From a virus, in the IMG/VR virus record IMGVR_UViG_3300009130_001286, positions 1 through 24,275 of that record: 24,275 nt of DNA. One strand, 5' to 3'. The notes beneath the pieces are model-generated. The model did no database searches, had not been told where the DNA came from, and saw only the letters and a program-made list of their open reading frames with translations. Both the position numbers and the translations under genes were made by a program. Of the stretch, positions 2,725-23,445 are shown in pieces. Position 1 is the stretch's first letter; the number at the start of each line of letters is the position of its first letter.

Positions 2725-3339
2725 TTAGATGATTTTATCAACAAGACCCATTTCTAATGCGTCCTCGGCTGAGAAAAACTCATCTGTGTTACGCGACATT
2801 ATATTATAGATCTCTCCGACCGATAACTTGCTGTGTTCTGCTAGCGCTTCAACCATCATATCCTCGACCTTCTTGAGTTCATCAAAATTGGCTCGAATAT
2901 CAGGATGGGTGCCAGATGCATTGGAAGAACAGTGATGGATCATCACGCGTGCGTTCTTGGCCAAATAACGTTTGCCGGGGGTTCCCGCGGCAAGGAGAAG
3001 AACTGCAGCCGAATAGACGCGCCCATATCCAAAGGTTGCAATGTCACGATTGGCTTTTACCACTCGCATAAGATCATAAACCGAGAACATGTCATTAACT
3101 GACCCTCCGCCCGAAGAGATAAAAAACTCAATATCCCCAGTGTCTTCAAGATCTTCTTTGGCGCACATTATACGCCCACCATTAAATCCCAACAAGGACA
3201 TCGCCATCTGCTGGGCGGCCTCTTCGGTGATGTCGCCGACTAATCCCATAAGCGGGGGCTCTTCCTCTGCGACGGGGCCCAGCATATGTGCTTCGCTGGG
3301 AAGATTCTCTTCTTCTGGGGCTTCGTTATTGGTAAACAT
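2725..3339 (-). CDS. clpP: ClpP-like serine protease A
   Basis: This is a ClpP/S14-family peptidase of 204 residues, close to the family length. The catalytic triad is intact: S110 in GRVYSAAVLLLAAG, H135 in VMIHH and D186 in NTDEFFSAEDAL. The glycine-rich ISSGGGS strand at 74-80 and the LLAAG-x-x-GKRY block are also typical. An acidic, Pro-rich N-terminal extension of about 30 residues precedes the fold and lacks a clear ClpP propeptide. ATG follows directly on the upstream TAA, with AGGAGG further upstream. A promoter inside the preceding gene (3458-3486) points at it. It may partner with a host ClpX/ClpA or process phage proteins. A prohead-protease role (ClpP-type maturation proteases exist) is an alternative. 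A second ClpP-like gene is at 6529-7101. Confidence 0.92.
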   Translation of the reverse strand: MFTNNEAPEEENLPSEAHMLGPVAEEEPPLMGLVGDITEEAAQQMAMSLLGFNGGRIMCAKEDLEDTGDIEFFISSGGGSVNDMFSVYDLMRVVKANRDIATFGYGRVYSAAVLLLAAGTPGKRYLAKNARVMIHHCSSNASGTHPDIRANFDELKKVEDMMVEALAEHSKLSVGEIYNIMSRNTDEFFSAEDALEMGLVDKII

Positions 3340-6282: not shown

Positions 6283-6532
6283 CTTGTACTCTTTCCAATC
6301 CTTCTTGTATTGTACTCCAACAATCGGGACATGTCAAGCGAACTCTTTCTTCTCGCACTACAACATGCCAGCTTTTAACTGTTTCCTTGTTTCTCTCAAA
6401 TGGAGATTTACAAACACAGCATTCTTTAGGGTGGTTAAGAAATGCCGCGGCTTGTTTTTCTAGTTGTTGTTTCGCAGCTTTTCTATCCTTCTTGCGTTTG
6501 TTGCTATCGACTTTTCTTATTTTAGGTCTCAT
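6275..6532 (-). CDS. Small zinc-finger protein of unknown role
   Basis: The product has 85 residues. The N-terminus is strongly basic (RPKIRKVDSNKRKKDRKAAK) and leads into a helix. Two cysteine knuckles, C38/C39-x-C41 and C68-x-x-C71, could hold one zinc ion around the strand pair SWHVVVREERVRLT. I recall similar small proteins as hypotheticals in T4-like phages, but no function. The start was taken at ATG 6532, which overlaps the ClpP-like B stop as ATGA. A longer frame to 6586 exists but would run deep into that gene. The promoter for the IMPDH-like gene lies within its 3' end. Confidence 0.78.
   Translation of the reverse strand: MRPKIRKVDSNKRKKDRKAAKQQLEKQAAAFLNHPKECCVCKSPFERNKETVKSWHVVVREERVRLTCPDCWSTIQEGLERVQDD
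6309..6337 (-). promoter_or_regulatory. Sigma-70-type promoter for the guaB unit
   Basis: On the minus strand TTGACA (6332-6337), 17 bases, TACAAT (6309-6314). It lies inside the end of the zinc-finger gene. The predicted start near 6302 leaves a 20-base leader. The -35 overlaps the palindrome GACATGTC. Confidence 0.75.
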
Positions 6533-7101
6533 ACTATCCCGTCGATAACCCCAAGGCGCAGGGCCTCCTCTGCCGTCATATACCAATCAATCTTGTTCTT
6601 CAGAACGTCTGCCAGTTTCTTTTGGCTAATATTAGTACGCTCTAGGGTTATTTCCTCTATCTTCTTTTGAAGTCTCTTGGTTTCTTCCAGGCTCTCCTCC
6701 ATATCTTTGACCTTTCCAAAGAAGCCAGTGGACACTTGGTGGTAAAGGGGGGTGGAGTATTCATAACCAAATCTTTTGTGGCCACAAATTAAAATCATAA
6801 ACCCACAGGACATGGCCGCCCCGGCAGCGATCGTATGAATAGGAGTGACGCTCTTGTTCATGATACCAAGAAGACCCATACATTGATAGACAGCACCCCC
6901 ATAAGAATCGATGTAAATTTCGATAGGCTTAGGCTGATACTCCAAATCATAAATTGGATAAAGCTTTTCCATATATCGATCGTGTTGATTGATCTCAATA
7001 ATGGATTTAGTCAAGTCGTTCATAGACTTCTGGTTTACTTGTGCAGCCAAGTATAGAGTGCGCTTCTTGGGGCGCGGAAGGTCAGCACTTACATCACTCA
7101 T
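6529..7101 (-). CDS. clpP: ClpP-like serine protease B
   Basis: This second ClpP-family peptidase has 190 residues. The triad is intact at near-E. coli positions: S98 in AAGAAMSCG, H121 in TPLYHQ and D172 in KIDWYMTAEEAL. The EIYIDSYGGAV strand replaces the usual InSPGG, and the handle region is a charged helix (about 130-165). It differs strongly from protease A (2725-3339), so these are diverged paralogues or separate acquisitions. Two ClpP types could form a mixed double ring. ATG 7101 follows directly on the dUTPase stop. No Clp ATPase is seen in the window, so a host ATPase or an ATP-independent role is needed. Confidence 0.93.
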   Translation of the reverse strand: MSDVSADLPRPKKRTLYLAAQVNQKSMNDLTKSIIEINQHDRYMEKLYPIYDLEYQPKPIEIYIDSYGGAVYQCMGLLGIMNKSVTPIHTIAAGAAMSCGFMILICGHKRFGYEYSTPLYHQVSTGFFGKVKDMEESLEETKRLQKKIEEITLERTNISQKKLADVLKNKIDWYMTAEEALRLGVIDGIV

Positions 7102-13625: not shown

Positions 13626-15272
13626 TTATATCTTTTGAATCTCGGAGCCGGTAACTTGAAATATGTTAAATTGTAGGTCGTCACGCCACAGTGCGTACCT
13701 ATCCCTGAAGGCTTTGTACTCGGCGAGAGGCTCCTCCCTATCATCAAACACATTTACGACGTCGACCTCGGGATAACGCTCCCAAATATTTTCCAGTCGG
13801 TCGACCTTAGAAAGACGACCTTTCTTAAGCATAATCTTATCAAAGTTGTAGCCACGATCACTCAAAAATTGACTTATCCTATCATATAATTTCGTGTTGC
13901 GATTAGAAATAACTACAGTCCGTGCCGAAGGGTCGGTGGAGAGCGCATCATATATTTTACGTAGGGTTTCGTTTTCCTCAATTTGTAACTCGTCAGCCAA
14001 ACTTTCTTCGCGACCGAACCATCCTTCGTGGGGATATTCTTTCCCGAAAACTTTTTCATAACGCTCTTTTCCAGTCTCTGCATCGGGAGTAAAAAATAAA
14101 GTTTTATCAAAATCAAAAACATTTAAAGTTTTAACACTAGGGTCTTCGTCTCCTATACTCTCGCGTACGGCCTTCACTGTTTCGCCTCGTGTTGAGAGTT
14201 GCGATACATTTTTATTAAATGCAGCGGCTGCGTTGACACCGCCGGGGCCGTGTTGCCCTTTAACCCCCAAGTCTAGTGCCACAAGTCGATTGTCGCCCGA
14301 GCGACCGAACTGTTCCTGATGGATGTCATTCCATGGGGTCTTATTATCAATGCGGATCTCCTTAACCAAACCAATAATGGACTGTAGATCCTCAGCCAAA
14401 GTATTTTTTGTAAAGCTCTTCTTGGGAGGGCGCCGAAATGTGGGATGACCGGCAAGGAACTGTACAATGTCCTTGGCATAGGGTACGTCGTTTTCTATCC
14501 CCAAATAATTTAAAATTATTTTCTTCAGATTGACCGGCCGATCCCAGCTGTTGACCATAACGAACTCTTTTGTTTTAGTCTTGCGAAACTTATTAAATTC
14601 ATTTATTGTAATGTTTCGTTGCTTTTTGGTAGCTCCCTGAAGAAACTCTTCTAGGCTTCCAAACCGGGCTGGGAGATTGGCGGCGGCGTCGCTATTCATA
14701 AACGCTAAAAAAATACTATCCACACGTTCTTGAAGCTCGGGGGCCCCTAACTGGTATAGCTGTACCAACTTATTCAGGTCTACGTTGGAGAGACGATTAA
14801 AAGCATCATAACCCAATTCCACATAGCGATAAATGTAAGGGTCCGGAGTTACCCTCTGCATGACAATGTAATAAACATCCTTAGTGGGCTTTGCTTGCTC
14901 GGGGGTGTAACTAGAACCTGTTTTATAAAAATAAACAGGCTGATCTAAAGCTATCTTTCCTGTGGAGTAAACTTGAGCTGTCTGCGGCATATTCTTGGAC
15001 ACAAGAGGTAGATTTTTTGCAGCGTTATCCAATGAATGAAACATTTTTATGACGCGCTTGTCGTCTAAGGAAATTACAATGCCTTCGGCTCCAGCGGCTT
15101 CTAGCTTGGGGTCCAGCTGGGCCTTAGCTGAGCCCGGTAGCTTCGGGGTAAGAACGCTCAGCAGCTCGTGCGCCAAAGGGCGCTCTTGGGTCTCGTCTCC
15201 CACAAAATAAAAATTTTCCTTAAGAAGTGTGCCTTTTGTATACCTCCGCCATCTTTCAAATAGAAGCTTCAT
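13626..15272 (-). CDS. Protein-kinase-like domain fused to a HAD phosphatase-like domain, with capsid-targeting-like N-terminus
   Basis: The 548-residue product begins MKLLFERWRRY and reaches L17-K18-E19, resembling a T4-type capsid-targeting sequence. Residues about 55-340 look kinase-like: a glycine loop (GAEG, 61-64), VIKM with K76, a hinge-like YYIVMQRV (134-141), a catalytic-loop-like WNDIHQEQFG (D316, with Q321 where Asn is usual) and ALDLG (D334) in the DFG place. Residues about 380-535 are HAD-like: FDFDKT (D387, D389, T391), VVISNR (S456), K483/K484 and FDDREE (D510, D511), so all four HAD motifs are present. It would add and/or remove phosphates on an unknown substrate. ATG follows directly on the stop of the sibling-leader gene at 15273-16049. 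Domain calls are from motif reading. The kinase half is less certain than the HAD half. Confidence 0.82.
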   Translation of the reverse strand: MKLLFERWRRYTKGTLLKENFYFVGDETQERPLAHELLSVLTPKLPGSAKAQLDPKLEAAGAEGIVISLDDKRVIKMFHSLDNAAKNLPLVSKNMPQTAQVYSTGKIALDQPVYFYKTGSSYTPEQAKPTKDVYYIVMQRVTPDPYIYRYVELGYDAFNRLSNVDLNKLVQLYQLGAPELQERVDSIFLAFMNSDAAANLPARFGSLEEFLQGATKKQRNITINEFNKFRKTKTKEFVMVNSWDRPVNLKKIILNYLGIENDVPYAKDIVQFLAGHPTFRRPPKKSFTKNTLAEDLQSIIGLVKEIRIDNKTPWNDIHQEQFGRSGDNRLVALDLGVKGQHGPGGVNAAAAFNKNVSQLSTRGETVKAVRESIGDEDPSVKTLNVFDFDKTLFFTPDAETGKERYEKVFGKEYPHEGWFGREESLADELQIEENETLRKIYDALSTDPSARTVVISNRNTKLYDRISQFLSDRGYNFDKIMLKKGRLSKVDRLENIWERYPEVDVVNVFDDREEPLAEYKAFRDRYALWRDDLQFNIFQVTGSEIQKI

Positions 15273-16049
15273 TTATTTCCCTTTAATAAAGTAATAGCCA
15301 TGGTCTTTAAAATCTTTTTTATTCATGATGTCATTACCTTTGGCATCGACCGGAGAGTTACCAGGAAAAACAGTCATTAAGGTAAGCACAGGCTTTCCAT
15401 TAACTTCACCGACCTGGGCAGCAATTACATTAACTTTATCAGTGGGGTTTTGCATCTTGTTGCCGGGAATAACCCCGATATCTTGCTTAATAAATGCCGG
15501 TACATCGGCAGCAAGGTGCTCTTTGGTATATGGCTTCCCCTCTTGGGTGACCAGTTCATACTTATTTTGTTGAGCTACTTTACTCACAACATCCCAGTCT
15601 TTAACCCGATCGACCATTCCAAATCGTTCCAGATCGGTAGAAACAGAAATACTCGGATCAGACGGATCGAGCTTTTTAAGACTATCGTGCCCAACCTGGG
15701 CGCCGGCGGGAATGTTTAGCCACTTGTACTTCGTCGTCCCACGCTCTTCGACTTGTTTGGTGGGTGGTGTAGATAGAACTTTTAAAATAAGATCAGAGAC
15801 TTTTTGTTCAGGAACGGCCCAACTGGAGCCGGGGTTACTTTTATCAAAATGCTTTTTAATATGATCGGATCCAAGCTCGCCAGGAAACTGTACATAATAC
15901 AAATTCTTTAAATCTTTTACTGTGTCGGGCGTCACCTTATCTGCCAAATGGGAGAGATATTGGTTGCCTTGCAGAATTTGCTGTACTTGAGCAGCGGGCT
16001 CTTCTTGTTCATTTAAGAACCTCTTCCAGTTTTCCATTATAAGTTTCAT
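15273..16049 (-). CDS. Putative packaged protein with capsid-targeting-like leader, unknown body
   Basis: The 258-residue protein starts MKLIMENWKRFLNE. This leader closely matches the next gene's (E-x-W-K/R-R-F/Y) and ends in L12-N13-E14, a fit to the T4 prohead-protease rule. The remainder is soluble and mixed. The C-terminal stretch (KPVLTLMTVFPGNSP and the DHGYYF end) vaguely recalls RNase-toxin-like folds, but I cannot support that call. ATG 16049 was preferred over an in-frame GTG at 16052. No ribosome-binding site is visible. The motif ACTATTTATA lies 5 to 14 bases upstream, so a transcript from it would be nearly leaderless. Together with the kinase-HAD gene it forms a two-gene unit. 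Confidence 0.78.
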   Translation of the reverse strand: MKLIMENWKRFLNEQEEPAAQVQQILQGNQYLSHLADKVTPDTVKDLKNLYYVQFPGELGSDHIKKHFDKSNPGSSWAVPEQKVSDLILKVLSTPPTKQVEERGTTKYKWLNIPAGAQVGHDSLKKLDPSDPSISVSTDLERFGMVDRVKDWDVVSKVAQQNKYELVTQEGKPYTKEHLAADVPAFIKQDIGVIPGNKMQNPTDKVNVIAAQVGEVNGKPVLTLMTVFPGNSPVDAKGNDIMNKKDFKDHGYYFIKGK

Positions 16050-16053
16050 CACT

Positions 16054-22514: not shown

Positions 22515-23222
22515 CTATTCCTCGCGCCAGTTCATCTTCCCGCCACTGCCGCCGTCGAAATCTATGCGCCTTTGACGCTCCTTACGATCTCTTTCAGCGC
22601 GCTGATTGGCTTTCTGGTCGTCTTCCCATGCATCCAGTTCACGGTTGCGGCGATCGCGGTCCATTGCTAGGGCTTTTTTGCGCGCGGCTTTCTCTTTGGC
22701 GTAGGCCGCGTCTTTGGTCTTGCCCTCATAGTCACGAGAAGCTTCGGTCTCGTCCCAAAGTTTCAGGAGCACCGCTTGTCCCGCTTTATCCAATGTCTTA
22801 TAAATCCGGTAAGCCAGCGCATCCTCTTCAGAGGAAACGCGCTTCTGAGGTGTGTGAGATGGGGGCTGGGTTAGAGCTTCTCCAATATCATCAATAACCG
22901 CTTGGGCAATCGTGGCACGGTATAACGAAGGGTCGTCATCCCAGGCGAGCTGGAGACTTTTTAGCAGAGGGCTTTTCGCGTTCTTGTATTCTTCCTTCGC
23001 GAGACCATCGATATCGGCTGCAGCCGTATAAGCTCCTTCAGCCCCGCCGCCGTTCGATTTTACGCGATGTGCCAAAGCCTTTCCAGGACTGCGCTTGGCT
23101 ATAAAGCCCTTGACTTTATCCATCAATCCCTCATCGATCTCTTCTTCTTGCCCTTCGGCTAAAAACTTGCGCCAGTTCTCTGTGATTAACTGGTGGCTTT
23201 TATAGCTGGAATATTTAGTCAT
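22515..23222 (-). CDS. Putative packaged/capsid-targeted protein, charged helical
   Basis: No enzyme family is recognised in this 235-residue protein. Near the N-terminus LITENWRKFLAEG carries the same E-x-W-R-K-F core as the leaders at 15273-16049 and 13626-15272, ending in L21-A22-E23, a fit to T4-type prohead protease cleavage. The middle is Ala-rich helical. The last 80 residues are a long charged helix rich in Lys, Arg, Glu and Asp (RDRRNRELDAWEDD and similar), ending in a glycine-rich tail. ATG 23222 was chosen with GGAG eight bases upstream; a longer frame to 23261 overlaps the upstream gene. The motif ACTATTTATA is at 23237-23246. DNA binding inside the capsid is a plausible inference, no more. 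Confidence 0.78.
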   Translation of the reverse strand: MTKYSSYKSHQLITENWRKFLAEGQEEEIDEGLMDKVKGFIAKRSPGKALAHRVKSNGGGAEGAYTAAADIDGLAKEEYKNAKSPLLKSLQLAWDDDPSLYRATIAQAVIDDIGEALTQPPSHTPQKRVSSEEDALAYRIYKTLDKAGQAVLLKLWDETEASRDYEGKTKDAAYAKEKAARKKALAMDRDRRNRELDAWEDDQKANQRAERDRKERQRRIDFDGGSGGKMNWREE

Positions 23223-23235
23223 CGCGATGTCTCCA

Positions 23236-23445
23236 CTATAAATAGTCTTCTTTCTTCCCAAGAGTGGATTCTTTCCAGTCTAACCAGAAGCCCACTGCTA
23301 CCATCAGGTGCATCAGAATAGAGGCACCGTACTCCCAGGCGTCATGGTAGGTAGCGAAGTGCAGGTGCACATGTCCCAAAACCCAAAAAGGTATAGCCAT
23401 TTGCTGACTATACCAGATTAGGAAGAACTTTACAAACTCTTTCAT
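23236..23445 (-). CDS. Small membrane protein of unknown function
   Basis: The 69-residue product has two hydrophobic stretches: FVKFFLIWYSQQMAIPFWVLG near the N-terminus and GASILMHLMVAVGFWL near the C-terminus, separated by a His-rich turn (GHVHLHFATYHD). This suggests a two-pass hairpin, with a charged tail (KESTLGKKEDYL). No family is recognised. ATG 23445 overlaps the recombinase stop (ATGA), so translation is coupled. The run of histidines could be metal-binding, but that is speculative. Confidence 0.68.
   Translation of the reverse strand: MKEFVKFFLIWYSQQMAIPFWVLGHVHLHFATYHDAWEYGASILMHLMVAVGFWLDWKESTLGKKEDYL
23237..23246 (-). promoter_or_regulatory. Candidate late-promoter motif
   Basis: The minus strand carries AGACTATTTATA, of which ACTATTTATA is 23237-23246, identical over 12 bases to the site at 16054. 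It overlaps the last codons of the small membrane protein and lies 14-15 bases before the packaged-protein ATG, just ahead of its GGAG site. Confidence 0.4.

What the first reader, a model, noticed from the sequence alone, without database searches (positions are those of the whole stretch)
13626..15272. Kinase-like plus HAD-like fusion carrying a capsid-targeting-like leader: a candidate injected signalling effector
Seen: N-terminal leader E-R-W-R-R-Y to L-K-E19; a kinase-like block (GAEG loop, K76, DIHQEQFG with D316, ALDLG with D334); then a complete HAD motif set (D387/D389/T391, S456, K483/K484, D510/D511). Known: T4 packages Alt behind a cleaved N-terminal sequence and injects it; T4 Pnk joins a P-loop kinase to a HAD phosphatase, but a protein-kinase-like fold joined to HAD is different. 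Inference: the protein is packaged, cut after E19, and alters phosphorylation of a host protein or RNA at infection.
Basis: partly seen in the sequence, partly recalled or inferred. Interest (0 to 1): 0.82.

Follow-up and report, generated by a model that had tools for sequence, protein, structure and literature searches.

The report
Capsid-leader kinase-like plus HAD phosphatase
A large phage encodes an enzyme that joins a protein-kinase-like domain to a phosphatase of a known RNA-repair type, behind a short leader resembling the tag phage T4 uses to load proteins into its head, so it is probably carried in the virus particle and delivered at infection, although packaging, cutting and targets are all untested.

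Summary
The leader is real: a W-type leader starts three unrelated window proteins (0.055 expected), and all eight family members have [LM]-x-E directly before a conserved [NE]FY although their leaders otherwise differ. It parallels T4's internal-protein tags (IPIII MKTYQEFIAE; the 19-aa IPI leader ending ITE). In four relatives the gene follows portal-side head genes; in three a prohead protease lies downstream. Residues 20-376 folded with seven relatives give pLDDT 82.6, and the 50 best Foldseek PDB hits are all kinase-fold enzymes (APH(2''), maltokinase), with low TM-scores. The C-terminus passes the Pfam HAD_SAK_1 (RNA-repair HAD) cut-off; related HADs are fused to tRNA-ligase-type 2H or CCA-transferase domains. 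One relative adds leader-tagged 2H and P-loop kinase genes between kinase and protease. Best reading: a virion-delivered enzyme whose HAD heals RNA ends and whose kinase-like domain modifies an unknown target. Packaging, cleavage and both activities are inferred. New variant of a known kind.

The parts
13626..15272 (-). gene of the kinase-like + HAD protein (548 aa)
15278..15283 (-). Shine-Dalgarno-like AAGGGA before the ATG
15216..15272 (-). leader, residues 1-19, ending LKE (candidate prohead-protease site)
14253..15098 (-). kinase-like domain, about residues 59-340 (GAEG 61-64, K76, D316, Q321, D334)
13629..14126 (-). HAD_SAK_1 domain, about residues 383-548 (D387, D389, T391, S456, K483, D510, D511)
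16008..16049 (-). W-type leader MKLIMENWKRFLNE of the adjacent unrelated protein (gene 15273-16052)
23154..23222 (-). W-type leader ..LITENWRKFLAE of a third unrelated protein (gene 22515-23261, likely start 23222)

Best explanation
The protein is a virion-delivered enzyme. Its leader places it in the prohead core, the prohead protease cuts after LKE19, and the mature protein (from N20) enters the host with the DNA. The HAD domain removes 2'/3' phosphates from broken RNA, most likely tRNA cut by host defence nucleases, as part of an end-healing set. The kinase-like domain phosphorylates a separate target, most likely a host protein of translation or defence. Shown by computation: leader pattern, conserved cleavage-type site, kinase-like fold with K/D/D residues, HAD_SAK domain, RNA-repair partners of related HADs, head-gene location in four relatives. 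Inferred: packaging, cleavage, injection, both substrates, the counter-defence role.
For: W-type leader on three unrelated window proteins, 0.055 expected; [LM]xE-[NE]FY fixed in eight sequences while the leader varies; match to the T4 IPI and IPIII leaders (PMC9026906); kinase gene beside portal-side genes in L036, L002, L004, L054 and upstream of a prohead protease in the last three; kinase fold; HAD_SAK_1; HAD relatives fused to 2H or CCA-transferase domains; leader-tagged 2H and P-loop kinase genes next to it in L004.
Against: No virion evidence. In the window and in L061 the gene lies among replication, nucleotide and chaperonin genes, not head genes. Four kinase relatives (L002, L049, L052, L054) have no HAD on the contig, so the two domains are not obligate partners. 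No RNA ligase (PF09414) was found on the contigs of the kinase family, most of which are fragments. TM-scores to solved kinases are low, the catalytic Asn is Q and no alpha-C Glu is conserved.
Confidence: 0.4

Rival explanations
1. One reading: a packaged, injected signalling effector in which kinase and phosphatase act on phosphorylation of the same host protein, as writer and eraser.
For: Kinase-like fold and HAD in one chain; leader. T7 kinase is a precedent for phosphorylating host translation factors (PMC5512222).
Against: The kinase occurs without the HAD in four relatives, and related HADs are fused to RNA-repair domains instead.
Confidence: 0.2
2. A prohead-core or assembly enzyme: it is taken into the prohead and acts on phage head proteins during assembly, with no role in the host.
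For: Gene sits between portal-side genes and the prohead protease in three relatives, the slot of T4 core genes 67 and 68.
Against: Not with head genes in the window or L061; an RNA-repair HAD has no evident assembly role.
Confidence: 0.2
3. An ordinary intracellular enzyme made after infection; the leader serves another purpose and is not a packaging tag.
For: No virion evidence; in the window it sits with replication genes.
Against: Recurrence of leaders on unrelated genes and the fixed LxE position.
Confidence: 0.2

Closest known systems
T4 internal proteins IPI, IPII, IPIII (capsid targeting sequence, gp21 cleavage)
   Same: Short N-terminal leader with spaced aromatics and a terminal [LI]xE; shared by unrelated proteins
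   Different: Enzymatic cargo of about 60 kDa; leader has W where T4 has Y/F; packaging not shown
T4 Alt
   Same: A host-modifying enzyme proposed to be carried in the head and cut at its N-terminus
   Different: Alt is an ADP-ribosyltransferase; here kinase-like plus HAD
T4 Pnk (5'-kinase / 3'-phosphatase)
   Same: Kinase then HAD phosphatase in one chain
   Different: Kinase part has a protein-kinase-like fold, not a P-loop; a separate P-loop kinase gene is present in L002 and L004
HAD_SAK_1 phosphatases of jumbo-phage RNA repair
   Same: Same Pfam family, above its cut-off; relatives share the YPHKGWWG region
   Different: Described as usually standalone (PMC7824862); here fused to a kinase-like domain behind a leader
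Kinase domains of phage polyvalent proteins (PMC5512222)
   Same: Kinases inferred to be injected; glutamate before strand 2; little sequence after the DFG-type Asp
   Different: A separate protein, not a domain of a giant polypeptide; no His-Asp insert recognised; helical insert before the catalytic loop

Membership tests
T4-type CTS cargo | N-terminal leader with spaced aromatics and terminal [LI]xE, shared by unrelated proteins of the genome | tested here: met
T4-type CTS cargo | Phage encodes a gp21-type prohead protease | tested here: inconclusive
   Present in L004 (Peptidase_S77, 1.4e-32) and by sequence in L002 and L054; the window fragment carries no head genes
T4-type CTS cargo | Present in virions, leader removed | not testable with these tools
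   needs virion proteomics
Protein-kinase-like fold | Two-lobed kinase fold | tested here: met
   pLDDT 82.6; the 50 best PDB hits are kinase-fold enzymes, best E 2.4e-4, low TM
Protein-kinase-like fold | beta-3 Lys, catalytic Asp, Mg-binding Asp | tested here: met
   K76, D316, D334 invariant
Protein-kinase-like fold | Catalytic-loop Asn and alpha-C Glu | tested here: not met
   Q321 in place of Asn; no conserved Glu in alpha-C
HAD_SAK_1 (PF10307) | Score above Pfam gathering cut-off | tested here: met
   28.6 against 25.6 bits
HAD_SAK_1 (PF10307) | Phosphatase activity on RNA ends | not testable with these tools
   needs an assay
T4 Pnk | P-loop kinase domain | tested here: not met
   no P-loop family match; kinase-like fold
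Polyvalent-protein kinases | Glu before strand 2; Gln in last N-lobe strand; His-Asp insert | tested here: inconclusive
   E63 in 8/8; Q139 in 5/8, Glu in 3/8; no His-Asp insert recognised

The most novel reading that the evidence does not exclude
Large phages load an RNA end-repair kit (2H phosphodiesterase, P-loop kinase, SAK-HAD phosphatase with a kinase-like partner) into the capsid behind targeting leaders, so that tRNA damage by host defences is countered before any phage gene is expressed.
Probability: 0.3. Interest if true: 0.82.

Novelty: new variant of a known kind. Interest (0 to 1): 0.6.

Why it matters
If true, RNA repair would be a function delivered with the particle rather than made after infection, letting a phage answer tRNA-cutting defences at once. 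The leaders also give a sequence handle for predicting injected proteins in uncultured phages.

Tried and rejected
A full-length fold with four sequences was poor (pLDDT 53.7) and its best PDB hits were not kinases, with HAD and Rossmann-type proteins prominent and no E below 0.001; replaced by the kinase-only fold with eight. A 20-row alignment put kinase rows on HAD columns and was not used for folding. Weak kinase-profile hits in two giant ORFs showed no kinase motif by a regex. Two scans of 84,980 prokaryote genomes and the named phage collection gave no kinase relative at the thresholds used. The compact DIHxEQFG phage proteins (L040 etc.) align only over 20 residues, so wider homology is not claimed. 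The Rnl1-type ligase search had no positive control and is not used. The thought that GAEG..IK could be RNA-ligase motifs was dropped after the fold search.

Full report
What was checked. It starts with ATG after AAGGGA, the upstream gene's stop abutting it. The window is an IMG/VR fragment of 24,275 bases with ClpP, IMPDH, adenylosuccinate synthetase, dUTPase, ribonucleotide reductase and DnaB-type genes.

The leader. Three unrelated window proteins (genes 13626-15272, 15273-16052, 22515-23261) start with a W-type leader; shuffled N-termini give 0.055. Relatives use other kinds: MKITxxQLRxIIKEEL..LxE on five and six genes of the L004 and L002 contigs by one pattern, and KITRRQLRRLI-type on 16 genes of the 236-kb contig of L049 with none in shuffled controls. 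Across eight sequences of the kinase family the leader differs but its end is fixed: [LM]-x-E, then [NE]FY. In a search for look-alike N-termini, the window, L002 and L049 leaders had their best (for the window, tied) match on another gene of the same contig; L036 and L052 had theirs on a related contig with an own-genome match close behind; L004, L054 and L061 had no good own-genome match. This supports modular leaders but is not proof. T4, read here, gives MKTYQEFIAE for IPII and IPIII, and IPI begins MKTFKEFTSTTTPVSTITE. Published work assigns IPIII targeting to residues 4 and 7 and processing to residues 8 and 10, with propeptides of 10-19 residues (PMC9026906). The window's W8-x-x-Y11-T and LKE19 resemble IPI; the neighbour's W-x-x-F-L-N-E resembles IPIII.

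Genome position. In L036 the fusion follows terminase, portal and two further genes. In L002, L004 and L054 the kinase gene lies between portal-side genes and a prohead protease; that of L004 matches Peptidase_S77 at 1.4e-32. T4 keeps its prohead-core genes 67 and 68 in the same slot. In the window and L061 the gene lies elsewhere.

The kinase-like half. None of eight members reached a meaningful Pfam match, and the profile found no PDB relative by sequence. Folded with eight sequences it gave pLDDT 82.6 and pTM 0.80. The 50 best PDB hits are APH(2'') and maltokinase (best E 2.4e-4, probability 0.90) with low TM-scores; viral hits include several annotated protein kinases. K76, D316 and D334 are invariant; spacing D316-Q321-D334 equals that of PKA D166-N171-D184 (PKA numbers from memory). 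The catalytic Asn is Q and no alpha-C Glu is conserved, so I call it kinase-like.

The HAD half. It passes the Pfam HAD_SAK_1 cut-off. Related HADs are fused to a tRNA-ligase-type 2H phosphodiesterase (L013) and to 2H plus CCA-transferase (L015); the L015 contig has two RNA ligase matches. A jumbo-phage review describes this family as a linear phosphatase of RNA repair that tends to stand alone (PMC7824862). In L004, leader-tagged 2H and P-loop kinase genes lie between the kinase and HAD genes and the protease; the P-loop protein's match to polynucleotide kinase is partial, so 'PNK-like' is tentative.

Domain partnership. Fusions in one frame: window, L036, L061. In L004 the HAD follows in the -1 frame after a run of ten A, with no start codon before its first motif. 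The contigs of L002, L049, L052 and L054 gave no HAD match. The kinase is the constant part and the HAD a frequent partner.

Conclusion. A leader-bearing kinase-like plus HAD enzyme is well supported by sequence and model. Carriage in the virion is probable, RNA end-healing is the best-supported role of the HAD, and the kinase target is open. None of the activities, nor the infection step, has been shown.

Noticed in passing
L004:11186-11209: The HAD domain lies in the -1 frame of the kinase gene right after a run of ten A; programmed frameshift or slippage could make the fusion (a sequencing error is not excluded).
   Followed up: partly
L073:1888-2697: A second kinase-like protein by eye (GAGSYRGVYEI..LVAKVAH) behind a KITRSQLKQLIWES leader; no Pfam match.
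   Followed up: partly
L030:11234-11959, L049:6814-7485, L052:6424-7140: A second HAD-type gene (DMDGV motif) carries a W-type leader in one phage and KITRNQLK-type leaders in two others.
   Followed up: partly
L015:6310-8436: 708-aa fusion of 2H phosphodiesterase, CCA-transferase and HAD_SAK; its contig has two RNA ligase matches.
   Followed up: partly
L004:1871-2929: Leader-tagged protein with a weak RNase_T (DEDD exonuclease) match, just below the Pfam cut-off.
   Followed up: partly
window 2725-3339 and 6529-7101: Two distinct ClpP-type protease genes in one phage fragment.
   Followed up: partly
L061:7560-7638: The 570-aa kinase-HAD ends in EQFDRIKFLAGIITEN, possibly a C-terminal processing signal; T4 Alt is reported to be cut at both ends (PMC9026906).
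   Followed up: no
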